This document shows, in pieces, positions 11,666-21,950 of a stretch of DNA of 64,000 nt. Numbering within the stretch: position 1 is the first letter of the stretch; every line of letters begins with the position of its first letter. This DNA comes from an uncultured Methanospirillum sp. (lineage in GTDB: Archaea; Halobacteriota; Methanomicrobia; Methanomicrobiales; Methanospirillaceae). The notes beneath the pieces were generated by a model that was given only the letters and a program-made list of their open reading frames with translations, did not search any database and had not been told where the DNA came from. The stretch lies in NCBI RefSeq assembly GCF_963668475.1, contig NZ_OY764544.1:2480001-2544000 (forward strand). Reading direction: 5' to 3'. The position numbers and the translations under genes are program-made.

Positions 11666-12350
11666 GACTAATGTTACCAGTATCGACCAGGCAGGATAAA
11701 TATCTTTCAAATATAATCAGGAATATTTAGGCAACGAGTTTGGCCAAAAAACTCTACGAATTCTGGAGTGAGATCAAATTATTGAATAAACTTCTCCCAA
11801 AAATCGGTTCGATTTAAAATATTGCTCTATTTGTTTACATTATGGGGGAAAACACAATAGTTTGGTCAAATTTTTTGCCGAAGTAACAAATATCAGTTCT
11901 GGTTTTAATATTTATAATTTTTTATCTTCAAGACATGATAGTGAATCACGAATCGGTACATTACACTCCCAATATCTGCCTTATTTCCTGGATTTAACCC
12001 CAATCTGATCCTATCATTCACCCGGTATGAATTCGCTGCCATTTAACCCGGCGTTCCCGGTTTCTCCGGATTTAATCATTTTACCAAGGCTCCGATATCC
12101 CCAGTAATAACCGTAACGATGTTTCTATCGACCCAGCCCTAGAAACTATGATAGCGACCGTCTATTGGCCTCACCATTTCTGGAACTGATCCCATATCCG
12201 GGATCAACCAACTCTTCTGGTATTCAACCCGGGATTTATCTATCCCTATCTTGCGGTTTAAGATTCTTATTATCCAGATCCCGGCCATTACTGTATGTAT
12301 TTGCAGAGATCTGGAAATCTCAGAAGTCATGAACCCATGATGGTGATACA
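11666..12350. other. Long intergenic region, no supported gene
   Basis: About 685 bp between divergent surface genes. The part next to the minus-strand gene is AT-rich, including a TATA-like stretch (TTTAATATTTATAATTTTTT) near 11904-11923 that could serve either direction. The part from about 11960 to 12290 is pyrimidine-rich on the plus strand, with recurring short blocks such as CCCGG and GGATTTAACC but no clean repeat unit. Short frames here are interrupted by stops and resemble no protein I know. It probably holds both divergent promoters and perhaps decayed sequence. Confidence 0.5.
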
Positions 12351-13250
12351 TTGGCAGACAGAACACTGCTCATATGTGCATGCCTCGTAGTTGTTGCGGT
12401 TCTGTTATTCGCAGGAACCGGATTACTCCTCATGTACAAAGGAACTCCTGACAAAAACCCAGGGGTCTCCTCACCGAAGAATGATGAAAAGATGAAAGCA
12501 CCTGGTCAGGGCAGTGGCCCTGCACAGATGCAGAAACCAGGAGAACAGTCCGGTCAGCAGCGTGAATCCGGTCAGGTAAATTCAAAGAACCAGGGTGGCC
12601 GGGAATCGGTGCCTGGGAACGAAAATCCAGGGAAGATGAGCCGTGATGGTCCAGGTTCAGGACCTCAGAGCCAGGACTGCCCGGGATCAGGATCTCAGAA
12701 TAATGCTGGTGGCCACGGTGGTCGAATCCAAGGTCAGGAACAGATGAGACCGGGATCCGGAGGCCATGAGTCCGGCCCAAGTGATTGTGGCTGTCCAAGC
12801 ATGAAGAAATCAGGCAGGCAGCAGGGAACTGATAATGGCCCCTCCGGAAAGGCAGATCGCGAGTTATCAGACAAGAGTCGCTGGGCTCCTGAAGAGTCCG
12901 GGAACGGCCAGTGTGAATCTCCAGTGAAAGCATCTGGTCGCCAACAGATGAGACAAGGGCCTGCAGGACAGGAGTCCGGCCCGAACGGCGGAGGGTGCCC
13001 CTGTGTCAAGAACACCGACCATCAGCAGGGACCGGAAAATGGCCCCGCTGGAAAGTCAGATCGTGAGTTCTCAGACAAGGGTCAGAGGACTCCTGAAGAG
13101 TCCGGGAATGGTCCACGAGGTGGAGCAATTGGCCAGGACCGGAGTTATCAGGGACCTGCAATCAAGGATAACGAAGCGTTCCATCACCGGTTAACCAACC
13201 CCGGTCAGCATGAGCGATCCGGATGCAGTTGCATCTGCTGGAAAGAGTAA
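12351..13250 (+). CDS. Gly/Gln/Pro-rich secreted low-complexity protein with Cys pairs
   Basis: Begins with TTG preceded by a strong ribosome site, GGTGAT at 12342-12347 (only 3 bases of spacing). Residues 5-28 form a signal or anchor helix. The remaining 270 residues are hydrophilic, rich in Gly, Gln, Ser, Pro, Asn and Glu. A 68-residue unit occurs twice (about 131-198 and 199-266), each with an ESGP motif, a Cys pair (CGC or CPC), an xQQGxxNGPxGKxDRE block and a PEESGNG block. The protein ends with a Cys-rich tip, GCSCICWKE. No family is recognised. The cysteines could crosslink or bind metal; a cell-envelope or sheath role is inference from the neighbours. A hairpin terminator follows at 13330. 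Confidence 0.7.
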   Translation: MADRTLLICACLVVVAVLLFAGTGLLLMYKGTPDKNPGVSSPKNDEKMKAPGQGSGPAQMQKPGEQSGQQRESGQVNSKNQGGRESVPGNENPGKMSRDGPGSGPQSQDCPGSGSQNNAGGHGGRIQGQEQMRPGSGGHESGPSDCGCPSMKKSGRQQGTDNGPSGKADRELSDKSRWAPEESGNGQCESPVKASGRQQMRQGPAGQESGPNGGGCPCVKNTDHQQGPENGPAGKSDREFSDKGQRTPEESGNGPRGGAIGQDRSYQGPAIKDNEAFHHRLTNPGQHERSGCSCICWKE

Positions 13251-13329
13251 CTGAGGCATTTGTCCGTGTTATCCTTTACTCCGGCGTACCCTTTTTTTGG
13301 AATGGTCTGGTAATATGAGGCAGTAAAAA

Positions 13330-13357
13330 CCCCAACGGGCCCTGTTGGGGCATTTTT
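13330..13357 (+). terminator. Hairpin terminator after the Gly/Gln-rich gene
   Basis: The stem CCCCAAC/GTTGGGG with a GC-rich inner part (CCCCAACGGGCCCTGTTGGGG) is followed by CATTTTT. The same stem closes the dispersed element found at 18.1, 19.4 and 43.9 kb, but here the upstream half of that element is absent. It lies 79 bp after the stop at 13250. Confidence 0.6.
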
Positions 13358-13465
13358 AATTCGAGATAGTGATGGGCCAGAGGCACCACCGATGAGGTAT
13401 TTTAAGGAGGATACCAACAAAGAGATATTGTACCGACAATAACATTCCAAACAAAAGGGAATCTG

Positions 13466-13687
13466 ATGTTTCAAAAATTCAATGTGGTGATTGAGCCTGG
13501 AGAAGATGGATGGTTTGTAGTGACCGTCCCAGGCCTTCCTGGTTGTATCACTCAGGGGAAGACCATCGAAGAGGCAACAGAAAATTCTAAGGAAGCCATA
13601 GAAGCATATCTGGAATCAAGTCAGAATAATGGAATCCCTTTTCGGGCGAGTCAAGTTTGTGTCAGAGAAGTTCTTGTAAACATATAA
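13466..13687 (+). CDS. hicB: HicB-family antitoxin
   Basis: A 73-residue protein with the compact HicB fold pattern: an N-terminal strand (FNVVIEPGEDGWFVVTVPGLPGC), then TQGKTIEEATENSKEAIEAYLES. HicB proteins neutralise the HicA mRNA interferase and often repress their own operon; this one has no DNA-binding extension, so regulation would need another factor. It looks intact. The adjoining hicA frame contains two stop codons, so this is now an orphan antitoxin. An AAGGGAAT ribosome site precedes the ATG. Confidence 0.85.
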   Translation: MFQKFNVVIEPGEDGWFVVTVPGLPGCITQGKTIEEATENSKEAIEAYLESSQNNGIPFRASQVCVREVLVNI

Positions 13688-13691
13688 CGTA

Positions 13692-13922
13692 ATGACATAA
13701 TTTCCTCTTCTCCCTGCCAGAAAAGTGATTAACGCTATGATACGGCTGGGATATTCTATCAATCATCTGAAAGGAAGTCATATTGTTCTGAAAAGTAATG
13801 ATAATCAACGAACTATTGTCGTTCCTGACCACCATGAACTTGACCGGGGAACTCTTAAGGCAATTTAAAAACAAGCAGGGATTGATATTGAAGATCTGCT
13901 ATCGGTTCTCACGGTATTCTAA
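13692..13922 (+). pseudogene. hicA: hicA toxin pseudogene (two in-frame stops)
   Basis: The frame starts at ATG 13692, 4 bp after hicB, but codon 3 is TAA (13698-13700). It then reads PLLPARKVINAMIRLGYSIN, HLKGSHIVLK, TIVVPDHHELDRGTLKAI, a second TAA at 13866-13868, and KQAGIDIEDLLSVL. This is the layout of the HicA double-stranded-RNA-binding-like toxin, including the GSH motif with its catalytic histidine. The second stop replaces an aliphatic residue inside the final helix. Both stops must be sequence errors or, more likely, the toxin is dead. Confidence 0.8.
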
Positions 13923-14074
13923 TGATATAATATTCGTATTTTCGTATACTGCGAAAAGAATTGCAAAAATGCTGCTCAATGGGTATTGGATTTACTATTA
14001 CATCCAAAATAACCTGAAATGTTCATATTCACTAGAATGAATAATTTTGTCAGACTCTGACTAACAAAAGCATC

Positions 14075-14098
14075 GTATACAGATGGGTAAACGTATAC
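14075..14098. promoter_or_regulatory. Possible operator: paired GTATAC palindromes
   Basis: Two identical 6-bp palindromes (GTATAC at 14075-14080 and 14093-14098) are spaced 18 bp apart within CATCGTATACAG and AACGTATACATCG, 28 bp before the hicB-like start at 14126. Paired palindromes of this spacing are common operators of toxin-antitoxin operons; the assignment is inference. A further small inverted repeat, GTCAG-ACT-CTGAC, lies just upstream near 14049. Confidence 0.3.
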
Positions 14099-14125
14099 AT
14101 CGGGATACTCAATCAGGATATCAGA

Positions 14126-14356
14126 ATGATCATATCAGGAAAACACCAGGAAACTGAAATACTATTTCTTGTTGAAGAAGCTGATGAGGGTGGGTATATT
14201 GCACGCTCACTTGCATATCCCATATATACTCAGGCAGATTCGCTCGATGAACTCAGGGAGATGGTTCGGGATGCGGTTCTCTGCCACTTTGGAGACGAAC
14301 ATTATCCGGCTTTAATCAGGCTTCACATCGTGAATGATGAAGTTCTCGCCGTATGA
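14126..14356 (+). CDS. HicB-like antitoxin (second HicBA module)
   Basis: A 76-residue protein with the pattern EILFLVEEADEGGYIARSL, QADSLDELREMVRDAVLCHF and IRLHIVNDEVLAV. This HicB-like family usually sits directly upstream of a HicA-type toxin and is sometimes misnamed as an oxoacid dehydrogenase. The gene appears intact. Its TGA overlaps the ATG of the hicA remnant (ATGA), the normal coupling for such pairs. Confidence 0.75.
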   Translation: MIISGKHQETEILFLVEEADEGGYIARSLAYPIYTQADSLDELREMVRDAVLCHFGDEHYPALIRLHIVNDEVLAV

Positions 14357-14487
14357 AAGTACCTCAGCATGTTTCTGGTTATGTCTTAATTGCGTATCTT
14401 GTTCCATTAGGGTTTCAAAAAGTTAGACCACCGGGAGTCGTGTTCGGCATATGTGAAAGACCCGATTCGGATATGTCAGGGACATGA
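14353..14487 (+). pseudogene. hicA-like toxin remnant (truncated or frameshifted)
   Basis: Coupled to the preceding gene by ATGA. The first 30 residues, MKVPQHVSGYVLIAYLVPLG then FQKVRPPG, match the N-terminus of HicA partners of this antitoxin family (usually MKxPRxVSGxxLxxxLxxxGYxxxRQxGSH). The frame then leaves the family and ends at codon 45. Shifting frame near 14430 restores a TGSRVR stretch resembling the RQTGSH region, but no convincing C-terminal half follows. The module has probably lost its toxin through a frameshift plus deletion. Confidence 0.6.
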
Positions 14488-14582
14488 TAGCAATGATAGA
14501 GAATCGTTTCATCACCGGTTCAAAAACACCGATCAGCACGTTTATCCTTTCGCCAACTTGCCATTTTTAATTTTATTTACAT

Positions 14583-15038
14583 TTACTCGGTTCTTGGATC
14601 AGGATAATTTTCATGTAAAAGGGTAGACCTGATGAACTCAATGATGGTCCTGCCTGATTCGATACTTCTTTGAGCAAGTGAATGGTCATAAATGCATCCA
14701 TAATCAGCGCTTTCACGGAAATTTTTAGCATCATCAAACAGGTAGAGAAAATCTTCAGGCAGATATCCTTCATCAACGTACAATGCCTCGAATGCGTCTC
14801 TCAAGCAGAGGTGGCTTTTCTCTCGAAACCCCTTTGCAAGTAACAGTGCCCGGAATCCATGAAAGATAGCGTAGTATGACTGAACGATAGCCTATTTGAG
14901 GTTTTCATCACGAATTGATCGTTCAGCATACTGAAGATCGGTTACGGATTCAGCAAACTCCTTTGCTACCAGATCAGCATCAAAATCGGTAGGAATGATC
15001 TTGCCCCTTTTCAGGCACTCCTCAAATCGTGTTCTCAT
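14583..15038 (-). pseudogene. HEPN-domain toxin gene broken by one amber codon
   Basis: From ATG 15038 the frame encodes 151 codons of a HEPN-type protein: MRTRFEECLKRGK, then LQYAERSIRDENLK, a TAG at 14892-14894, then AIVQSYYAIFHGFRALLLAK and GFREKSHLCLRDAFEALY through to YPDPRTE. Related HEPN proteins commonly have Trp where the TAG sits (xYKWAxVQAYYAxFH), so one base change (TGG to TAG) explains it. HEPN proteins are usually RNases held in check by an MNT partner, here the preceding gene, which overlaps it by ATGA. Everything after the stop is still well conserved, so the mutation looks recent. Confidence 0.75.
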
Positions 15039-15580
15039 GGCTCCCCATCGTAAACAACCTTACCCTGATTAATTCGCTTATACAGTGGAGGATCATTTGT
15101 CTTCAATCGGGCGAATTCCCCAGGGGTTAGGATTATTGGAGATACCTCCCTATCCGAAATATCCGTATTCTCTGCAAGTATGCGATGGATTTCATCCCGT
15201 TCTAAACTGATGATCATAAGATCAATGTCACTATCAACAGTATCTTCTCCTGTTGCAGAACTTCCAAAGAGGATAATTTTACTGACACATCCTTGCATCT
15301 TCCGGACAACTGGATATATTTCAGAGAGAGTACAGAGTATTTTTATCTCCCGGACGATAGGGTTGTGTATTGCTGCATGATACAGGGCTAATCTCCCCCT
15401 GTCAATCCTGACAACCAGTTCCTGTTCTCTCAGTGTCTTCAGTGTCGTACTTACTGTACCAGTACTGATCCCTGTCTCTCTTGATATTTCCCTGACATAT
15501 TTATCTTCTCTCCATCTCCTTCCAAGATAGCAGATAATCGGTATGGCTTGCGGAGGAAGAGTGTTCATAATATTGAACAT
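15035..15580 (-). CDS. HTH-fused MNT nucleotidyltransferase antitoxin
   Basis: A 181-residue protein. Residues 1-75 form a winged-helix DNA-binding domain (YVREISRETGISTGTVSTTL). Residues about 90-180 form a minimal nucleotidyltransferase with the GS-x-x-DID motif, LFGSSATGEDTVDSDIDLMI, which holds the catalytic aspartates. MNT proteins neutralise HEPN toxins, in characterised cases by adding AMP to the toxin. The HTH suggests autoregulation of the operon. It looks intact although its HEPN partner has a stop codon. An AT-rich stretch (CAATTAATTATC) just upstream may be its promoter. Confidence 0.85.
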   Translation of the reverse strand: MFNIMNTLPPQAIPIICYLGRRWREDKYVREISRETGISTGTVSTTLKTLREQELVVRIDRGRLALYHAAIHNPIVREIKILCTLSEIYPVVRKMQGCVSKIILFGSSATGEDTVDSDIDLMIISLERDEIHRILAENTDISDREVSPIILTPGEFARLKTNDPPLYKRINQGKVVYDGEP

Positions 15581-15795
15581 ATGTTCTGATAATTAATTGA
15601 TTTGATCAGTATTCTAATTCTTTGGTTAGTTGGATTGAACCTCTTGTATTGTTACCCGATGTGTTTTGTATCACCACTCAACGAGAGGTAATTGGCAATT
15701 TTTGGCCGGGATCTGTACTTTATTAGTGGCATTCCTGTTTTCGCTTCCTGAACATTTACCCATGGGTAGCCTTTTGTCAACCTGGATCAAAGAGA

Positions 15796-16014
15796 ATGAT
15801 CATGCTTGATATTCGCCACCAGTCGATAACATCAGAAGATGGTAGACCTGTTGGGGTGATTCTTGATATTGATACTTTTCAGAAGATTGAAGCGATAATT
15901 GAGAATTATGGTTTAACTCACCTCATGGCCGAAGCAGAAGATGACGAGGAATTAGGAATGGAAGACGCAATTAAACTCTATAAATCATCTATTGCTGGAC
16001 CAGATAATGGTTGA
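15796..16014 (+). CDS. Phd/YefM-like antitoxin
   Basis: A 72-residue protein. Its N-terminus, DIRHQSITSEDGRPVGVILDIDTFQKIE, is the usual strand-turn-strand of Phd/YefM-type antitoxins, followed by a helical acidic tail (EAEDDEELGMEDA) that typically wraps the toxin. The first of two close ATGs (15796, 15802) is used. It overlaps the downstream RelE-type gene by 8 bp. This is the one module in the 13-20 kb island in which both partners look intact. Confidence 0.75.
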   Translation: MIMLDIRHQSITSEDGRPVGVILDIDTFQKIEAIIENYGLTHLMAEAEDDEELGMEDAIKLYKSSIAGPDNG

Positions 16015-16279
16015 ATGCAAATACAAAAAAACAACCATTAAGGATCTAGCAAATATTCCCTGTCCATATCGGGATAAAATTTCGAAAATAATCTTTGAAG
16101 ATATCCCGCATGCCAATAATATCCATAGTTGTGGGTTAGATATCTCTCCTATGAAAGGGTACCCTGATACATACCGGATTCGAGTTGGTAAATACCGCAT
16201 TGGGTTGAAAATAATGGGCAAAACTGTTGTATTTTATCGAATAAAAAGCAGGGAGGAGATATACTCTATGTTCCCATAA
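16007..16279 (+). CDS. RelE/ParE-family toxin
   Basis: A 90-residue basic protein starting at ATG 16007 (a TTG at 15992 would add five residues). The motifs KKTTIKDLANIPCPYRDKI, MKGYPDTYRIRVGKYRIGLK and VVFYRIKSREEIY match the RelE fold, with the conserved LxGYPxxYRIRVGxYRI core. RelE toxins cut mRNA on the ribosome; ParE relatives act on gyrase, and sequence alone does not separate them. It overlaps its antitoxin by 8 bp, so the two are translationally coupled. Confidence 0.8.
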   Translation: MVECKYKKTTIKDLANIPCPYRDKISKIIFEDIPHANNIHSCGLDISPMKGYPDTYRIRVGKYRIGLKIMGKTVVFYRIKSREEIYSMFP

Positions 16280-16413
16280 ACCTTCTCTCTTGTTCAAAAT
16301 CAAGACTGAAACTGCTGTGTCACAGGTAATTTTTAGGAAGATTCTGGTATCGCCCTGGTGTAACCTTTCTCACACGAAGGTATGATGAGTGATGAGGACA
16401 GTACCCCTCATCT

Positions 16414-17022
16414 ATGCGGCCATTCGTACTCATCTCCTCTCTCCTTCTTCTCGCCCTGATTGTTCCCTACTCCCTGGCAGAAGACTCCACTGCCTGGTAT
16501 GACAAGGGCATGGAACTGATGAACCAGAGCAAGTACCAGGATGCAGCAGCAGCATTCCGGAACGCTACCAACCTCGATCCGAACAACACATGGGCCTGGC
16601 TCAATCTGGGAAAGGCCATGCAGGGAATGAACTGGATCACGCCGTCTTATGATGCCTTTAAAAATGCGACAACCACTGATGCGAACAACACATGGGCCTG
16701 GATATTCAGGGGGAACTTCCTCCAGGACCGGGGTCAGATTTCCCAGGCCATAACCATGTATCAGAATGCGATAAAGTCAGATCCGAAGAATGCATGGGCC
16801 CGGTATCATCTCGGAACTGCAGAGCAGGCTCTTGCCCATTATGCTGAGGCAGAAAAGGCATTCAGGAGTGCAATTGACATAGATCCAACAAACCAGTGGG
16901 CCTGGTACAACCTTGCCATGGTGCAGAAGTCCATGGGTGACTATGGCGGATATACCATGAACCTCATGAAAGCGAGTGAGATTGACCCGGATCTTCCAAG
17001 AAAAGTAGGCTTGGTATCATAG
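16414..17022 (+). CDS. Secreted TPR-repeat protein
   Basis: A 202-residue protein with a signal peptide (MRPFVLISSLLLLALIVPYSLA) followed by about four TPR units with the W-x-x-x-G/N-x-x-x-x-x-x-x-x-Y-x-x-A pattern; AWYDKGMELMNQSKYQDAA is typical. Outer-surface TPR proteins are abundant in methanogens and act in protein-protein contacts; no partner can be named. It is monocistronic, between the RelE gene and a convergent HepT remnant. Confidence 0.8.
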   Translation: MRPFVLISSLLLLALIVPYSLAEDSTAWYDKGMELMNQSKYQDAAAAFRNATNLDPNNTWAWLNLGKAMQGMNWITPSYDAFKNATTTDANNTWAWIFRGNFLQDRGQISQAITMYQNAIKSDPKNAWARYHLGTAEQALAHYAEAEKAFRSAIDIDPTNQWAWYNLAMVQKSMGDYGGYTMNLMKASEIDPDLPRKVGLVS

Positions 17023-17099
17023 CCCCTTTTTTCGGGTATTGTTCTGAGTGGTATCGGTTCTGATCGTTCACATCAATCTGATAACACTTTGAGTATGTA

Positions 17100-17443
17100 T
17101 CATCGCGATGGTGATATTTCATCAATGATCTTTACAATGGAGGCTTTCAATGTTGGTAGATCTGAAATTACCGCATTCCAAACCTCATGAGGGTCAACTC
17201 CAAAATATTGGTGAACAAACAAATTTCTCATATCAATTATCTGACGCCAGGGAATTTGTGGATATTGTAACCTGAATCCAGGTGACACTCCTGCAGAAGC
17301 TTCACCAATCTCCTGAATATAATGAATAATCCAGATTTGACTAACTCGTTTGAGATGAGATCTTCGAAAATTGGTGGTTGATATTTTTCTATCTGATAAA
17401 TCGCTTCAAGAATATCTTTGAGCCTTGAGAGATCATCTCTCAT
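17100..17443 (-). pseudogene. HepT-like HEPN toxin pseudogene (frameshift)
   Basis: The N-terminal part in one frame reads MRDDLSRLKDILEAIYQIEK and ends ISNELV. The family continues in another frame with SQIWIIHYIQEIGEAS, IPWRQIIDMRNLFVHQYFGV and VWNAVISDLPTLK. Loss of one base at about 17341 (GAGTTAGTCAAATC) explains the change. The C-terminal part keeps the R-x4-H motif region (RNLFVHQYF) of HepT RNase toxins. It begins in a 4-bp overlap with the preceding mntA gene. The unshifted frame continues as an aberrant 68-residue product. Confidence 0.82.
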
Positions 17444-17730
17444 AGCGGTACTGCCTCATGAACAACCTGTTCGAGAACACGAGGCCTCAATCCCCTGTCA
17501 CTTACTACATGGACCTGAACACCAAGGAGATCCTGAAGATCGTGGATGAGATCTGAGTGAGTAAATAATGAGAAATCTGGTCCGGGATGTACCAGGATAT
17601 CAATGTCAGAGTTTTCATCCTGTGATCCCCGGGCAACAGATCCAAAAATCCGGATATTTGTCACCTGATATCTGGCTGTTATCGCATGGATGTCATCACG
17701 CCTGGAACGGATCATATCGAGGGTATACAT
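17440..17730 (-). CDS. mntA: MntA-type nucleotidyltransferase antitoxin
   Basis: A 96-residue minimal nucleotidyltransferase with an intact motif, IFGSVARGSQDENSDIDILV, and the family's C-terminal LGVQVHVVSDRGLRPRVLEQV. MntA adds AMP groups to HepT and silences it. Its hepT partner, coupled by ATGA, is frameshifted, so the antitoxin has outlived its toxin. An AGAAGGAGAAC ribosome site precedes the start. Confidence 0.85.
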   Translation of the reverse strand: MYTLDMIRSRRDDIHAITARYQVTNIRIFGSVARGSQDENSDIDILVHPGPDFSLFTHSDLIHDLQDLLGVQVHVVSDRGLRPRVLEQVVHEAVPL

Positions 17731-18068
17731 GAGTGACTATTGTTCTCCTTCTGGATAATTCTGGATCTAATTTCTGCAGGTAGGATCTTTAATATGTATT
17801 CCAGATCCTTGATTTGTTCCTCCTCACGTGTGGATGAGCGGACTCTATCAACTCAATCATCAGATCACTTTGGATGGATTAATCGCAGGACGATCAAACC
17901 CTGAAAATACGAAAAAACCTCTTGGGGTATTCTTCATTATCCCATGGGATAGTATCCACCTGAGTTGACCTTATATAATACTACCATTTACAATTCTTTT
18001 AAGGAATCGATCAGATACCTGGCTTCCCTGATTACATCTGGTATCTGGCAATCAATCGGACAAGTATC
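17731..18068. other. Intergenic region with a TATA-like promoter
   Basis: About 340 bp with no credible gene. The left part would hold the promoter of the minus-strand mntA gene. At 17971-17980 there is TTATATAATA in a CCTTATATAATACT setting, a good archaeal TATA box on the plus strand about 90 bp before a short open frame (18069-18230) that contains the first copy of the dispersed hairpin element. Nothing else is recognised. Confidence 0.4.
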
Positions 18069-18095
18069 ATGAGTGACACTCTTCAACATGGGATC

Positions 18096-18167
18096 TCTCT
18101 TTTGCATGAAAAAGTCCTTTTCACCGGTCCTACCTGGGGCCCCCAACGGGGCACCGTTGGGGTTTTT
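18096..18167 (+). repeat. Dispersed structured element, copy 1
   Basis: About 72 bp, nearly identical to copies at 19363 and 43862. Layout: TTTTGCATGAAAAAGTCC, TTTTCACCGGTCC, TACCTGGGGCCCCC, then a stem CCCCAACGG/CCGTTGGGG with loop GGCA, then TTTTT. The first half can also pair (TGAAAA/TTTTCA, loop AGTCC). The 3' part looks like an intrinsic terminator. This copy has the longest perfect stem (9 bp). Unlike copies 2 and 3 it does not follow an obvious plus-strand gene. Confidence 0.7.
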
Positions 18168-18303
18168 AAAGATGGAAAATATACCCTAGATTCCCGGAAA
18201 TCTGTAACGAGTGAGGAAGTAAAATCTTAAAATTGATTGCAAAATTAAAAAATGATTGATTATAGGGGATTAAAATTTTTATCCTCGTTATGTATTTTTA
18301 GCA

Positions 18304-18402
18304 CACATAACGATTAGGTGCAATTTTCTAATCTCTATAATATTATCTTCATTTAGATAAATTTCTTCGTATACCTCTCGGACCTTTTTCCATCGTTATG
18401 TG
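18304..18402. repeat. 10-bp inverted repeat enclosing 99 bp
   Basis: CACATAACGA at 18304-18313 and its exact reverse complement TCGTTATGTG at 18393-18402 bound a 99-bp AT-rich segment. A further CGTTATGT lies just outside at about 18287. The right repeat sits where the truncated TPR gene begins. It could be a small insertion (MITE-like) or an operator pair; with one example and no target duplication identified, this is tentative. Confidence 0.3.
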
Positions 18403-19315
18403 TTCCCGGGAATCAAGGATATACCGAAGCAGCTGAACTCCTTCAGCAGTATCTTCAGGAGAACGAGAACGACCCGAAAGCCTGGAATGCTCTCGGTGTT
18501 ATCTGCTCCAAATCAGGACAGTATAAAGACGCCAGTACCTGTTTTGAGAATGCAATGGTCTGTGATCCAGATAATCCGGTATATCTCAAAAATCTTGAGA
18601 GAAACCGATCCAAACTAAATATCAACAATCCCCTGCTAGAAACTGCCAGAGAAAAAGAGACCCAATCCAGTTCTCGCAAACTCCTCTCGTCACCACCGTT
18701 CTCAAATCCACGGATGGTCTATGGCAGGGTAATGATTGGAGTCCTTATTGTTGTTGGGTTGGTATTCATGGGATTGAGCGGTTATCTCGCCACCGGTGCA
18801 GGCTCTCACCTCAATACATCACCAGACACCCAAAAACCAGCCGTGTCAACTCCATTGGCTCCACCTCTTCCGGCCTTACACCAAAACTGACAAGTGAAGC
18901 CGCAAATACCAGTGAAATGAAGGCTACTGTTGCTGCTTTATACGATCAGTCCAGGTATCAGGAAGCAATTGTTATGATCGACGAACTCCTGAAAGTTGAG
19001 CCGGATAATCCCGGGATCTGGATAACAAAAGGAATTGCTCAGTATCGTCTCGGTCTGTACCAGGATGCAGTACACTCGTTTGATCAGGCATTACTGATAG
19101 ATCCGAACTCCACTGATGCCCAGGTCAACAAAAAACTGGCTCTCGTATATATTGAGACACCAACTCCGACATCTACCCCAACCCCGATGGCAACCCCGAC
19201 AAAACCTGAAGGAAAACCTCCGCAATCTGGCGAAAAACCACCGGGTGGTGCAGGCATTGGTGGCGGTCAGGGAATGCCGGGGGATAAGGGCCCAGGGCAA
19301 AAACCAGATCAATAA
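18399..19315 (+). pseudogene. TPR membrane protein pseudogene (5' truncated, frameshifted)
   Basis: The reading frame enters without a start codon and encodes a TPR unit (GYTEAAELLQQYLQENENDP, KAWNALGVICSKSGQYKDAS), then NLERNRSK, a transmembrane helix (VMIGVLIVVGLVFMGLSGYL) and a Ser/Thr/Pro linker ending at a stop at 18890. A second frame, open through the linker (TSSGLTPKLTSEAANTSE), continues with two more TPRs from ATG 18917 and a Pro/Gly-rich tail to 19315. Joining the two at about 18850 makes one TPR-TM-TPR protein, so I read this as a single gene with a lost start and one frameshift. The 3' half alone might still be translated. Copies 1 and 2 of the dispersed element flank it. Confidence 0.6.
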
Positions 19316-19362
19316 TCTCTCATCCTCTATCAAAACTTTTTGAGGGGGTATTTCCTTGAGTC

Positions 19363-19433
19363 TCCTTTTGCATGAAAAAGTCCTTTTCACCGGTCCTACC
19401 TGGGGCCCCCAACAGGGCACCGTTGGGGTTTTT
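19363..19433 (+). repeat. Dispersed structured element, copy 2
   Basis: Almost identical to copy 1. In the 3' hairpin, CCCCAAC/GTTGGGG encloses AGGGCACC (A in place of copy 1's G shortens the stem to 7 bp), and TTTTT follows. It lies 47 bp after the stop of the TPR pseudogene, a suitable place for a terminator. Together with copy 1 it forms a direct repeat about 1.27 kb apart around that gene. Confidence 0.7.
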
Positions 19434-19511
19434 ATGGGTATCATATCTGTAAGCCAAGGCCCATCATGTGCATCTGAAAAACCTGATCACAGAGAAGACT
19501 CAATATCTGAT

Positions 19512-19814
19512 ATGCACCGGGTTGATTCCTTTGAAGAGGTAAAAGAGGTAATCAATCTCAATAGGGCTGATCTGGAACAAAAGTGCCCGATCTCAAAAAT
19601 CGTTGTATTTGAATCAGCTGCCAGAAACCGACTGACCGAATCGAGTGACATAGAGATCCTGATAGAATTCAACAGGTCTGTCGGATTTTTCACTCTCACA
19701 CACCTGCAGAGTGAGTTGCGTTCTCTCCTTGGTCGGGATGTTGATCTTACAACCCCCGGGGCACTTCACCCTCTTCTTAAAGAATCAATACTTCAGGATC
19801 TCGTGTATGTCTGA
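19512..19814 (+). CDS. MNT-type nucleotidyltransferase with altered catalytic motif
   Basis: A frame of about 100 residues from ATG 19512 (MHRVDSFEEVKEVI). The nucleotidyltransferase motif reads VFESAARNRLTESSDIEILI: the Gly before Ser is Glu, and the second catalytic Asp of D-x-D is Glu. The rest (LTHLQSELRSLLGRDVDLTT) fits the MntA family. With both changes the enzyme may be inactive. The frame is also open upstream through element copy 2 from a TTG at 19356, which I do not regard as the true start. It overlaps a 33-codon frame by 8 bp. Confidence 0.65.
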   Translation: MHRVDSFEEVKEVINLNRADLEQKCPISKIVVFESAARNRLTESSDIEILIEFNRSVGFFTLTHLQSELRSLLGRDVDLTTPGALHPLLKESILQDLVYV

Positions 19815-19908
19815 ATCCCTGGAAATAGGAGTCAGGGAAGACATCTCTTCAATTCAAAATTTTTTGATGTCAGAGTTTAATACTACAATAACTGAACTGA
19901 TTAATTAA
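19807..19908 (+). CDS. Very short ORF in the HepT position (possible toxin remnant)
   Basis: A 33-codon frame starting inside the end of the MNT gene (8-bp overlap). It begins MSESLEIGVREDISSIQNF. The position and coupling are those of a hepT gene, but the product is far too short for a HEPN domain (about 110 residues or more) and too short to identify. It is either a truncated toxin or a chance frame. Confidence 0.3.
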   Translation: MSESLEIGVREDISSIQNFLMSEFNTTITELIN

Positions 19909-20166
19909 TGAGCGACTCCGCCGTTCTTTCAGATGGAGAATATAACTCCTTTACTGCAATTATTAAACAGGATGGCCCATGGTGGATTGGATGGATTGAA
20001 GAGATTCATGGGGTAAACTGTCAGGAAGAAACATACGAAGCACTCCTGGTACCTTAATCCAATAGAAAAAAAGCGTTCTGCTGTTCCTCGTCATGAAGAA
20101 TTGAGTTACATTTTAGCACGAAAAATCTGTAAGGAACTCTGCATTCCTCAACCTGATGACAGTTGA
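19908..20166 (+). pseudogene. hicB-hicA remnant joined by an internal deletion
   Basis: From ATG 19908 the frame gives a HicB N-terminus with YNSFTAIIKQDGPWWIGWIE and GVNCQEETYEALL, then stops at 20055-20057. From about 20050, in another frame, comes a HicA C-terminus with NPIEKKRSAVPRHEEL and ARKICKELCIPQP, ending at 20166. The missing stretch would be the HicB C-terminal helix and the HicA N-terminus with its GSH motif, so one deletion of roughly 150-250 bp probably fused them. Neither product should work. Confidence 0.65.
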
Positions 20167-20293
20167 TAGCCACAATTTCCAAGCCTGAATCACTTCATGC
20201 TTTAAAAATACGAAAGATTATTGACTCACCCTTCAGCCTGTTCACACTATTCTCTAAACCCAACCATCGGTACACTCTCTTTTACGTGCCATA

Positions 20294-20304
20294 TTTTATA
20301 TAAT
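20294..20304 (+). promoter_or_regulatory. TATA-box promoter of the 20.4-kb PKD gene
   Basis: TTTTATATAATA in an AT-rich setting lies about 80 bp before the ATG at 20382. That start has a very strong ribosome site, GGAGGT at 20371-20376, five bases upstream. The separate TATA box and ribosome site suggest a leadered transcript of about 50 bases. Confidence 0.5.
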
Positions 20305-20381
20305 ATCTTTAATATAGGTAACATACAGATATCTTACCTGTTTATCTGCCTGCCGCCCGGGGATGTGTTTGGAGGTATTCC

Positions 20382-21950
20382 ATGAACGAAGAAGAAGATG
20401 ATATGCTCGAACTGCTTGATGATGATGAGCTGATAGCAGAATCAGCCCATAATGAAGCACTCGGGCATGCGGAAGAGTCATCTGACGACTCGCCTGACGA
20501 TGAGTTAGAACTGGAAGAGTCTGAAGAGGAAGAAGAGTTAGCCTTGGAAGACACTGGAGAGGAGCAGGCCGGTGAACCTGAACCGGAGCCTGAACCTGCA
20601 ACAGAGAAGGAAGGCCTTGAGGTTGACGTACGATATCTTATCGTTGCTGCGGTAGCCATAGCAGCAATCCTTGTCGGTGCTGTCCTCTTTGTGCTTCCGA
20701 TGTTCTCAGACAAAGCACCGGATGTCTCTTTCAACCCGAGTCAGACCGGTGAAGATCTCTTCCTGTACCATGCCGGAGGAGCCCAACTCTCTAAAGAGTT
20801 CCTGACCGTTCAGATAAATGGGGCACCGGCATCACCTGACAAATATATGCTCATGGGTGGGGGAAACTGGCCATGGTCTTCAGGTACTGTGCTCAGGGTG
20901 GATACCTCTGGATATACCAAACCTGCAGTGGTAACCCTGTTCTATAAACCGAAGTCAACCGAGTACACCGTGTATACAACCACGGTTCAGCCCTCCCAGA
21001 CTCAGACCCCTGAGCCGGTGACAACTCCTGAGCAGCCTGAACAACAGGGACCTGCACAGAATGTCACACCCGGAGCACCTCCGGCCGGTCCACAGCCGGC
21101 AGCACCGGAAGTAACACCACAGCAGGTCCCACCAACACCTCTGGCAACACCGGTACCGGTTGCTGCACCTGTATCAGCCGGTGGAGTGGTAATGGATGTC
21201 CAGCCTGCAGCAGGTTCTGCACCGCTCACCGTCCAGTGTAATGACCTCTCAACCGGTTGCATCAGGAACCGGGTCTGGAGCTTCGGCGATGGTATGACCA
21301 CCATGAAACGCAGCCCGACCCATGTCTTCCCATTCCCGGGAACCTACAATATCTCACTCGATGTCAGGTTCTGTGATCCTGAAGACGACCAGGTACCTCC
21401 GACCAGGCAGGTTGTGGTGGCCCCGTCAAACCGGCAGGACACGATCATCCAGGGAACCGGAAAGGCAGAGATCAGTGTTGACGCAAAGATCTTCTTCACC
21501 GTCAAGGGTCCGGGGACCAACGTCAGAATTGGTGGGCGTGATCACACCCTGAAGTCAGGTGACCATGTCGAACTGATCCTCGGAAGCGGTGGAAGCGGCG
21601 ACCTTTCAGTAGTCTCTAACGCGATTCTGAAATGTGACTACAGTAATGTCACCATGGTAGTAAATGGCGAAGAAGTGGAGAACGGAACCGTATCAGCCAT
21701 CAATATCGATCAGTACCTCCAGTTTGAAACTGCAGATCTTACCATCAAAGTCCTGGCAGGCAGAGATGGTGCAAAGGGTCTCGTTGGAGGCCAGCCGGTG
21801 ATCAACGCAGCCAAAGGTCAGCAGATCACTTTCAGCAATGTCGGCACTGATTCACTCGGCAAACTCCTCTTCAGTGTCCAGGATTCGGCAGGATTTACCT
21901 TCAGGGGCGGGGTCGGGTCGTACGACGTCTCCACTCCCCCTCCCCTCTGA
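20382..21950 (+). CDS. PKD surface protein with acidic cytoplasmic tail and pilin-like ectodomain
   Basis: A 522-residue protein. Residues 1-82 are extremely acidic (repeated D/E runs) with no signal peptide. A helix follows at about 85-108 (YLIVAAVAIAAILVGAVLF), then a pilin-like ectodomain with NWPWSSGTVLRVD, which aligns with the next gene. A Pro/Thr-rich linker leads to one PKD domain (about 270-345; RVWSFGDGMTTMKRSPTHVF) and a C-terminal domain of about 160 residues shared with the next gene and the 2166-residue protein. The acidic tail should lie inside the cell and could bind a cytoplasmic partner; that is inference. It probably starts an operon with the gene at 22061, 110 bp downstream. 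Confidence 0.8.
   Translation: MNEEEDDMLELLDDDELIAESAHNEALGHAEESSDDSPDDELELEESEEEEELALEDTGEEQAGEPEPEPEPATEKEGLEVDVRYLIVAAVAIAAILVGAVLFVLPMFSDKAPDVSFNPSQTGEDLFLYHAGGAQLSKEFLTVQINGAPASPDKYMLMGGGNWPWSSGTVLRVDTSGYTKPAVVTLFYKPKSTEYTVYTTTVQPSQTQTPEPVTTPEQPEQQGPAQNVTPGAPPAGPQPAAPEVTPQQVPPTPLATPVPVAAPVSAGGVVMDVQPAAGSAPLTVQCNDLSTGCIRNRVWSFGDGMTTMKRSPTHVFPFPGTYNISLDVRFCDPEDDQVPPTRQVVVAPSNRQDTIIQGTGKAEISVDAKIFFTVKGPGTNVRIGGRDHTLKSGDHVELILGSGGSGDLSVVSNAILKCDYSNVTMVVNGEEVENGTVSAINIDQYLQFETADLTIKVLAGRDGAKGLVGGQPVINAAKGQQITFSNVGTDSLGKLLFSVQDSAGFTFRGGVGSYDVSTPPPL

What the first reader, a model, noticed from the sequence alone, without database searches (positions are those of the whole stretch)
13466..20166. 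Toxin-antitoxin graveyard in which toxins die and antitoxins survive
Seven TA modules of three kinds (HicBA x3, MNT/HEPN x3, Phd/RelE x1) lie within 6.7 kb. In five the toxin reading frame is visibly broken (stops, frameshift or deletion), and in a sixth only a 33-codon stub remains in its place; five of these antitoxins keep intact frames and one is truncated by the same deletion. Only Phd/RelE looks complete. This asymmetry is what is expected when selection to keep a toxin lapses but losing an antitoxin first is lethal. The surviving antitoxins could also act as anti-addiction genes against incoming plasmids or related toxins.
Basis: partly seen in the sequence, partly recalled or inferred. 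Interest (0 to 1): 0.7.

Follow-up and report, generated by a model that had tools for sequence, protein, structure and literature searches.

The report
Dead toxins beside intact antitoxins
A methanogen carries seven small poison-antidote gene pairs side by side, and six poisons are broken while most antidotes stay readable; relatives show the same one-sided decay, as expected if the antidote cannot safely be lost first.

Summary
Window 13466-20166 carries seven modules (HicBA x3, MNT/HEPN x3, RelB/ParE x1). Six toxins are broken; five of their antitoxins have open frames and one is cut by the same deletion as its toxin. The related genome G004 lacks both inserted intervals at the syntenic site.

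The bias recurs. In 193 HicBA and MNT/HEPN pairs from eight Methanospirillum genomes, a fixed rule finds 40 with only the toxin broken and 6 with only the antitoxin broken (length-weighted p 1.8e-5). Three genomes not used to build the profiles gave 15 against 2. On reading, 36 of the 40 and 1 of the 6 hold.

Antitoxins with dead or undetected toxins show no clear relaxation of dN/dS. In one orthologous pair that seems to share a toxin deletion, the MNT still evolves under purifying selection.

Corrections: MNT3 has lost two residues of its catalytic GSX10DXD motif and is probably inactive. MNT1/HEPN1 is Class II, whose toxin role is unproven. HicB2 has an intact sister module in the same genome. 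Anti-addiction is untested. TA decay and orphan antitoxins are already known; the additions are this clean case, the count and the selection test.

The parts
13466..13687 (+). HicB1 antitoxin, 73 aa, intact frame
   Evidence: PF15919 6.9e-13; 81-90% aa identity to four relatives, dN/dS 0.04-0.09
13692..13922 (+). HicA1 toxin remnant, two in-frame stops (codons 3 and 59)
   Evidence: alignment with four open relatives; PF07927 hit with a stop inside
14126..14356 (+). HicB2 antitoxin, 76 aa, intact frame
   Evidence: 89% aa identity to the HicB of the intact module in L030, G000:C1:1172733-1175500; no Pfam hit on its own
14353..14487 (+). HicA2 stub: about 30 recognisable codons, then other sequence
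   Evidence: alignment with relatives; tail resembles 13140-13210
14583..15038 (-). HEPN1 (PF05168, Class II) remnant, one in-frame TAG
   Evidence: stop where L027 and L061 (38-40% identical) have Trp; PF05168 hit with 1 TAG
15035..15580 (-). MNT1: winged HTH plus nucleotidyltransferase, 181 aa, intact frame, GSX10DXD kept
   Evidence: PF18765/PF01909 and HTH hits; PADLOC PDC-M05A 2.6e-22
15796..16014 (+). RelB-like antitoxin, 72 aa, intact
   Evidence: PF18506 7.3e-21; 77% aa identity to L013 of G009
16007..16279 (+). ParE/RelE-like toxin, 90 aa, intact: the only complete module
   Evidence: PF05016 3.2e-5, 24.9 bits over a cut-off of 23; 71% aa identity to L013
17100..17443 (-). HepT2 remnant, frameshifted; RX4HXY motif lies beyond the shift
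   Evidence: two-frame reading and alignment with G009; PF01934 2.9e-16 on the 3' part
17440..17730 (-). MNT2 antitoxin, 96 aa, intact, GSX10DXD kept
   Evidence: PF01909 5.9e-11; 77% aa identity to G009 MNT, dN/dS 0.072 with dS near saturation
19512..19814 (+). MNT3, 100 aa, open frame, but Gly and second Asp of GSX10DXD replaced by Glu
   Evidence: PF01909 4.5e-9; motif kept in L063 and L084; motif scan
19807..19908 (+). 33-codon stub where relatives have HepT
   Evidence: translation; relatives with open HepT in L063 and L084; tblastn finds no relative of the stub in the fetched loci
19908..20057 (+). HicB3, truncated at 49 codons by a deletion
   Evidence: 71% aa identity to L156, 69% to L071
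20011..20166 (+). HicA3 3' part, out of frame with HicB3, joined by the same deletion
   Evidence: 54% identity to L156, 46% to L071; translation
18186..18419 (.). MITE-like dispersed element between modules E and F (context, not a TA part)
   Evidence: 7 copies in own genome, this one included, 97-100%; inverted ends and short flanking duplications read by eye

Best explanation
TA modules were inserted into two intergenic intervals flanking a TPR gene in this Methanospirillum lineage. Ordinary substitutions, small indels and deletions then accumulated. Cells that broke the toxin survived; cells that broke the antitoxin first were killed or impaired, so the surviving genome shows mostly toxin-first decay. 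Shown here: the lesions, the absence of the inserts at the syntenic site in G004, the bias in which partner breaks across eight genomes, and low dN/dS in antitoxins whose toxins are dead or not found. Inferred: that the inserts are gains, that lethality of antitoxin-first loss causes the bias, and that retained antitoxins are kept because they still neutralise related toxins, resident or incoming.
For: Lesions against relatives. Syntenic site in G004: 196 bp between TPR gene and right flank against 3.3 kb here, and 0.8 kb on the left against 3.9 kb here. Census of 193 pairs in 8 genomes: toxin-only broken 40, antitoxin-only broken 6, both 4; p 3.1e-7 at even odds, 1.8e-5 length-weighted. Genomes not used for the profiles: 15 against 2 in 59 pairs, p 0.0023. 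The 40 fall in 32 antitoxin clusters; of the 8 clusters with two members, 6 show clearly different lesions, while L106/L078 have stops in adjacent positions (TAA and TAG) and L056/L174 stops within 3 positions. In toxin-first operons the count is 4 to 0 (28 pairs), in antitoxin-first ones 36 to 6 (165 pairs). Median antitoxin dN/dS: both toxins alive 0.118 (46 comparisons), both dead 0.09 (7), both not found 0.136 (40). L113/L187 seem to share one toxin-deleting fusion, yet their MNTs differ by 8 nonsynonymous and 15 synonymous changes, dN/dS 0.143, p 2.4e-5 on a simple site-count null.
Against: MNT3 kept its frame but lost catalytic residues, so an open frame is not proof of function. One clear counter-example exists (G003 L155: HicB with an early stop, HicA open). 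Four of the 40 have damaged antitoxins on reading (L108, L138, L140, L173), and the L034 MNT stops a few residues early. HicA1 outside its stops is about as conserved as HicB1 (dN/dS 0.11-0.12 against 0.09 in the two comparisons where both could be computed), so it died recently and the window alone cannot show selection on its antitoxin. dN/dS is slightly higher when neither toxin is found (0.136) than when both are alive (0.118). Comparisons overlap and include time before toxin death. Outside the genus no usable test was made. No raw reads, expression or toxicity data.
Confidence: 0.75

Rival explanations
1. Plain neutral decay: the island is non-functional and both partners break at random; the window merely caught the toxins first.
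For: A neighbouring TPR gene appears split into two frames (no close relative to compare), and a MITE-like element sits in the interval. MNT3 has lost catalytic residues.
Against: 40 against 6 across 193 pairs, 39 against 6 without the window. Antitoxins with no toxin detected nearby are mostly open: 49 open against 13 broken, with 19 partial or start-less hits set aside; some of the 49 may not be antitoxins (long MNTs such as L022, L151, L192).
Confidence: 0.08
2. Sequencing, assembly or cloning artefact: intact toxins are under-represented in what was sequenced.
For: No reads were available. Genomes made from clone libraries can lose toxin clones (general knowledge).
Against: Random errors should hit both partners. 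24 of the 40 toxins carry in-frame stops only. Lesions mostly differ between species and occur in eight genomes.
Confidence: 0.04
3. Toxin loss is actively favoured because toxins cost growth, not merely tolerated.
For: Toxins are broken by the rule in 44 of 193 pairs, and relatives of the same module are broken in several species (HicA2, HepT2).
Against: Nothing here measures cost. 143 of 193 pairs have neither partner broken by the rule.
Confidence: 0.3
4. Antitoxins are retained for a function of their own: neutralising paralogous or incoming toxins (anti-addiction), or regulation.
For: No clear relaxation of dN/dS when the toxin is dead or not found. Orthologous solitary MNTs in four species keep the GSX10DXD motif. 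HicB2 has an 89% identical homologue in an intact resident module. Orphan antitoxins and anti-addiction are described in bacteria (PMC7192599, PMC2654758; passages read).
Against: MNT3 is catalytically altered. HicB1, MNT1, MNT2 and MNT3 match the fetched G000 loci at only 25-55% aa identity. Cross-neutralisation was not tested.
Confidence: 0.4
5. Programmed recoding or phase variation: the 'broken' toxins are conditionally read.
For: HepT2 frameshifts lie within a few codons of each other in two species.
Against: They run in opposite directions, no slippery site was seen by eye, and 29 of the 40 rule-based cases carry in-frame stops.
Confidence: 0.02

Closest known systems
Decay of ccdO157 in Escherichia coli (Mine et al. 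2009)
   Same: A chromosomal TA system acquired horizontally and degenerating
   Different: One system in one species there; here seven modules in one locus plus a count over eight genomes. The paper itself was not held; known here only through passages of PMC2654758 and PMC7167474.
Orphan antitoxins of the Klebsiella pneumoniae complex (PMC7192599)
   Same: Many antitoxins without a functional toxin partner, suggested to be remnants or anti-addiction genes
   Different: That survey lists orphans; the passages read do not count toxin-only against antitoxin-only lesions. Here lesions in both partners were counted by one rule.
HicA-rich TA clusters with solitary hicB, such as the Methanosarcina barkeri defence island (PMC10865869)
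   Same: Clustered hicBA modules with solitary hicB in a methanogen
   Different: Solitary genes are mentioned in the passages read; frame-by-frame decay of partners is not.
HepT/MntA type VII systems (PMC7641770)
   Same: Modules E and F are of this kind by family; MNT2 and the relatives of MNT3 carry GSX10DXD, the HepT2 remnant carries RX4HXY
   Different: HepT2 is frameshifted, the toxin of module F is all but gone, and MNT3 lacks the motif; module C is the untested Class II

Membership tests
HicBA (modules A, B, G) | HicB-like antitoxin next to a HicA-family toxin | tested here: met
   A: PF15919 on HicB1, PF07927 on HicA1. B and G: by homology to relatives only. Folds not modelled.
HicBA (modules A, B, G) | Complete, translatable toxin | tested here: not met
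   Two stops (A), truncation (B), deletion (G). These are remnants, not working members.
HepT/MntA type VII (modules E, F) | MNT antitoxin with GSX10DXD | tested here: inconclusive
   Met in MNT2, not met in MNT3. NCBIfam MntA model found at 41.6 and 39 bits, below its cut-off of 60.
HepT/MntA type VII (modules E, F) | HepT toxin with RX4HXY in an open frame | tested here: not met
   E: motif present, frame broken. F: only a stub.
Class II HEPN/MNT (module C) | PF05168 HEPN next to a GSX10DXD MNT, no RX4HXY | tested here: met
   PF05168 hit; by eye no RX4HXY in the translation, the nearest being RSTLLHENY. Toxicity of this class is unproven in PMC7641770. HEPN1 itself is broken.
RelBE/ParDE (module D) | RelB/ParD-type antitoxin with RelE/ParE-family toxin, both open | tested here: met
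   PF18506 and PF05016 above cut-off.
Anti-addiction module | Antitoxin neutralises a related toxin on an incoming element | not testable with these tools
   Only homology to 21 fetched G000 loci was examined; plasmid and phage collections were not searched.

The most novel reading that the evidence does not exclude
Methanospirillum genomes keep a repertoire of toxin-free antitoxins under purifying selection, a heritable immunisation set against the TA toxins that circulate among them. Decay of a captured module is then not just loss but conversion from an addictive element to a protective gene.
Probability: 0.2. Interest if true: 0.72.

Novelty: new member of a known kind. Interest (0 to 1): 0.42.

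Why it matters
Addiction theory predicts an order of decay: toxin first. Broken TA genes are hard to detect and easily skipped, so the order is seldom counted. Reading every frame with one rule gives a measurable toxin-first bias in an archaeal genus, and orthologous solitary antitoxins that seem to share one toxin deletion allow selection after toxin death to be measured. That makes the question 'are orphan antitoxins relics or protective genes?' testable.

Tried and rejected
Generality outside the genus: 60 best-scoring HepT and HicA loci from other genera of the order gave 63 pairs with neither partner broken, 1 toxin-only and 0 antitoxin-only. Choosing by best score favours intact genes, so this is uninformative and is not used as support.

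Rfam on 11700-20500: 0 matches. MNT1 relatives in genome contigs: none confirmed. Programmed frameshifting: rejected, since the shifts in two species run in opposite directions. Recoding of stops: rejected by judgement, not tested; TAA, TAG and TGA all occur among the lesions.

Limits of the rule. Incomplete or start-less hits count as unbroken. In the window only module C counts as toxin-only; A and E count as unbroken pairs, and B, F and G are not detected as pairs. In the five discovery genomes seven HicA genes that look damaged or truncated at one end (L035, L086, L093, L103, L129, L143, L145), beside open HicBs, are also counted as unbroken. An antitoxin can serve two toxins (the L200 MNT does). 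One search gave 22 against 2 when ambiguous hits were set apart; one search gave 25 against 4 for the same genomes with them counted as unbroken, and that is the figure used. Of the six antitoxin-only cases, read by eye: L106 HepT has a different N-terminus than its relative in L109, L046 and L081 toxins look truncated or damaged at the C-terminus, L183 HicA is truncated, L196 has a second, open HicB beside HicA, and L155 stands. MNT matches weaker than about 9e-9 were not listed, so weak solitary MNTs are under-sampled except in G000. The census used 8 of 12 genus genomes; G005, G006, G007 and G011 (64-84% complete) were left out, G002 (88%) was kept. For the three later genomes 60 of 61 planned regions were fetched. 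In one search ambiguous toxins, comparisons under 55% identity and saturated ones were dropped. The motif scan used a looser pattern (G[SA], 6-12 residues, DxD).

Literature: eight searches. In their listings and in the passages read I saw no paper that counts toxin-only against antitoxin-only lesions, but most subscription journals are not held. Predicted structures and plasmid/phage collections were not used.
Full report
Setting. The window is G000:C1:2480001-2544000 of a 3.93 Mb single-contig genome. Its genus is Methanospirillum: a pattern from module A hits a contig named M. stamsii whose length (43059) equals that of contig C58 of G009, a genome of the same genus. G003 has the length I recall for M. 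hungatei JF-1.

The seven modules. A: HicB1 is open and 81-90% identical to four relatives; HicA1 has two in-frame stops, while the same gene is open in G001, G003, G004 and G009. B: HicB2 is open; HicA2 ends after about 30 recognisable codons in sequence resembling 13140-13210. An intact copy of this module lies in the same genome (L030). HicA2 relatives are also broken in G003, G004 and G010, and open in G002, G007, G008 and L030; in G003 the HicB relative is shifted near its start too. C: MNT1, a winged-HTH nucleotidyltransferase, is open; HEPN1 carries one TAG. D: RelB-like and ParE-like genes are complete. E: MNT2 is open; HepT2 is frameshifted, and G009 has its own shift in the opposite direction, with its MNT open. 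F: MNT3 is open, but relatives L063 and L084 have the GSX10DXD motif and an open HepT, while MNT3 has Glu in place of the Gly and of the second Asp, and only a 33-codon stub follows. In MntA of Shewanella, changing GS to AT, or both Asp of DXD to Glu, abolishes toxin modification, and the Asp changes weaken neutralisation (PMC7641770, passages); MNT3 has lost one residue of each, so it is probably inactive. G: one deletion joins a truncated HicB3 to the HicA3 3' end out of frame.

Origin of the locus. In G004 the right flank, the TPR gene and the left flank are collinear with the window, but no match to the window is found in the two intervals that hold all seven modules, and these are short: 196 bp against 3.3 kb on one side and 0.8 kb against 3.9 kb on the other, the latter including the 3' part of a Gly-rich gene. 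G002 has 1.2 kb with an unrelated frame in the first interval. Gain in this lineage is the simpler reading; loss in G004 is not excluded.

Census. Profiles were built from intact local domains of five genomes. All frames of the fetched loci were searched with stops read through, and a lesion was defined as a stop before 88% of the profile or collinear pieces in two frames. Treating incomplete hits as unbroken, the five genomes gave 134 pairs: 25 toxin-only, 4 antitoxin-only, 3 both. Three further genomes, with profiles and rule unchanged, gave 59 pairs: 15, 2 and 1. Together: 193 pairs, 40 against 6, p 3.1e-7 at even odds and 1.8e-5 when weighted by the share of surveyed length (57% toxin). 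Without the window: 39 against 6. By family: HicA 11 against 3 (65 pairs), HepT 15 against 3 (86), Class II HEPN 14 against 0 (42). On reading, 4 of the 40 have a damaged antitoxin (L108, L138, L140, L173) and only 1 of the 6 stands (L155). The 40 fall in 32 antitoxin clusters. Lesions are stops only in 24, frameshifts only in 11 and both in 5.

Selection on antitoxins. Median pairwise dN/dS is 0.118 when both toxins are alive (46 comparisons), 0.09 when both are dead (7) and 0.136 when neither is found (40); mixed classes lie at 0.094-0.139. Toxins: 0.111 alive-alive (49), 0.163 alive-dead (36), 0.155 dead-dead (8). These comparisons overlap and include time before toxin death. A cleaner case is the MNT of L113 (G001) and L187 (G008). 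In both, the next frame starts 7 bases after the MNT match with about 17 codons that look like a HepT start, fused at the same junction to a gene that is 17 codons shorter in G009 and G010 (likeness judged by eye). If so, toxin loss predates their split. Their MNTs differ by 8 nonsynonymous and 15 synonymous changes (dN/dS 0.143, p 2.4e-5), and orthologues in G009 and G010, with no toxin found beside them, keep the motif. A GSX10DXD-like motif is kept in 75 of 78 MNTs with live toxins, 30 of 31 with dead, 45 of 48 with none found and 11 of 13 ambiguous.

What this does not show. Antitoxin-first loss was not shown to be lethal; neutralisation of any toxin was not tested; HicA1 still looks conserved outside its stops, so it died recently. 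HicB2 could guard against its intact sister module (89% aa identity between the two HicBs); HicB1, MNT1, MNT2 and MNT3 match the 21 fetched G000 loci at 25-55% identity, and HicB3, RelB and ParE gave no listed match. The HEPN of module C belongs to Class II, which lacks RX4HXY and whose toxicity is unproven; PADLOC lists the MNT1 family as PDC-M05A (I recall PDC as 'phage defence candidate').

Against the literature. TA decay by deletion and nonsense mutation (PMC7167474, passages), orphan antitoxins and their proposed anti-addiction role (PMC7192599, PMC7354431, PMC2654758, passages), and clusters with solitary hicB in a methanogen (PMC10865869, passages) are known. A reviewers' exchange in PMC2701414 (passages) notes that TA pseudogenes are hard to detect. 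The window is therefore a clean new instance of a known process; the counted bias and the post-loss selection test are the additions.

Noticed in passing
window 18186-18419: MITE-like element: 7 copies in the genome (this one included) at 97-100% identity, similar inverted ends and short flanking duplications (TATACC here), read by eye; also in G004. It looks recently active and lies at the start of a TPR-like gene.
   Followed up: partly
window 18099-18168 and 19365-19434, inverted piece at 13325-13350: A 70-nt palindromic, terminator-like repeat, 99% identical in two copies within 1.3 kb; similar translated pieces were seen beside L025 and L159.
   Followed up: no
window 18424-19315: A second TPR-like gene appears split into two frames between modules E and F; no close relative was found to confirm the break.
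   Followed up: partly
L113 and L187 (G001, G008): About 17 codons that look like a HepT start (by eye) are fused, at the same junction, to a downstream gene, right after an intact solitary MNT.
   Followed up: partly
window 14468-14538 and 13140-13210: The 3' end of a Gly/Gln-rich gene is partly duplicated (76%) where the HicA2 3' half should be.
   Followed up: no
L063 (G004:C8:544263-549874): Two intact MNT genes in tandem before one HepT: a possible source of spare antitoxins.
   Followed up: no
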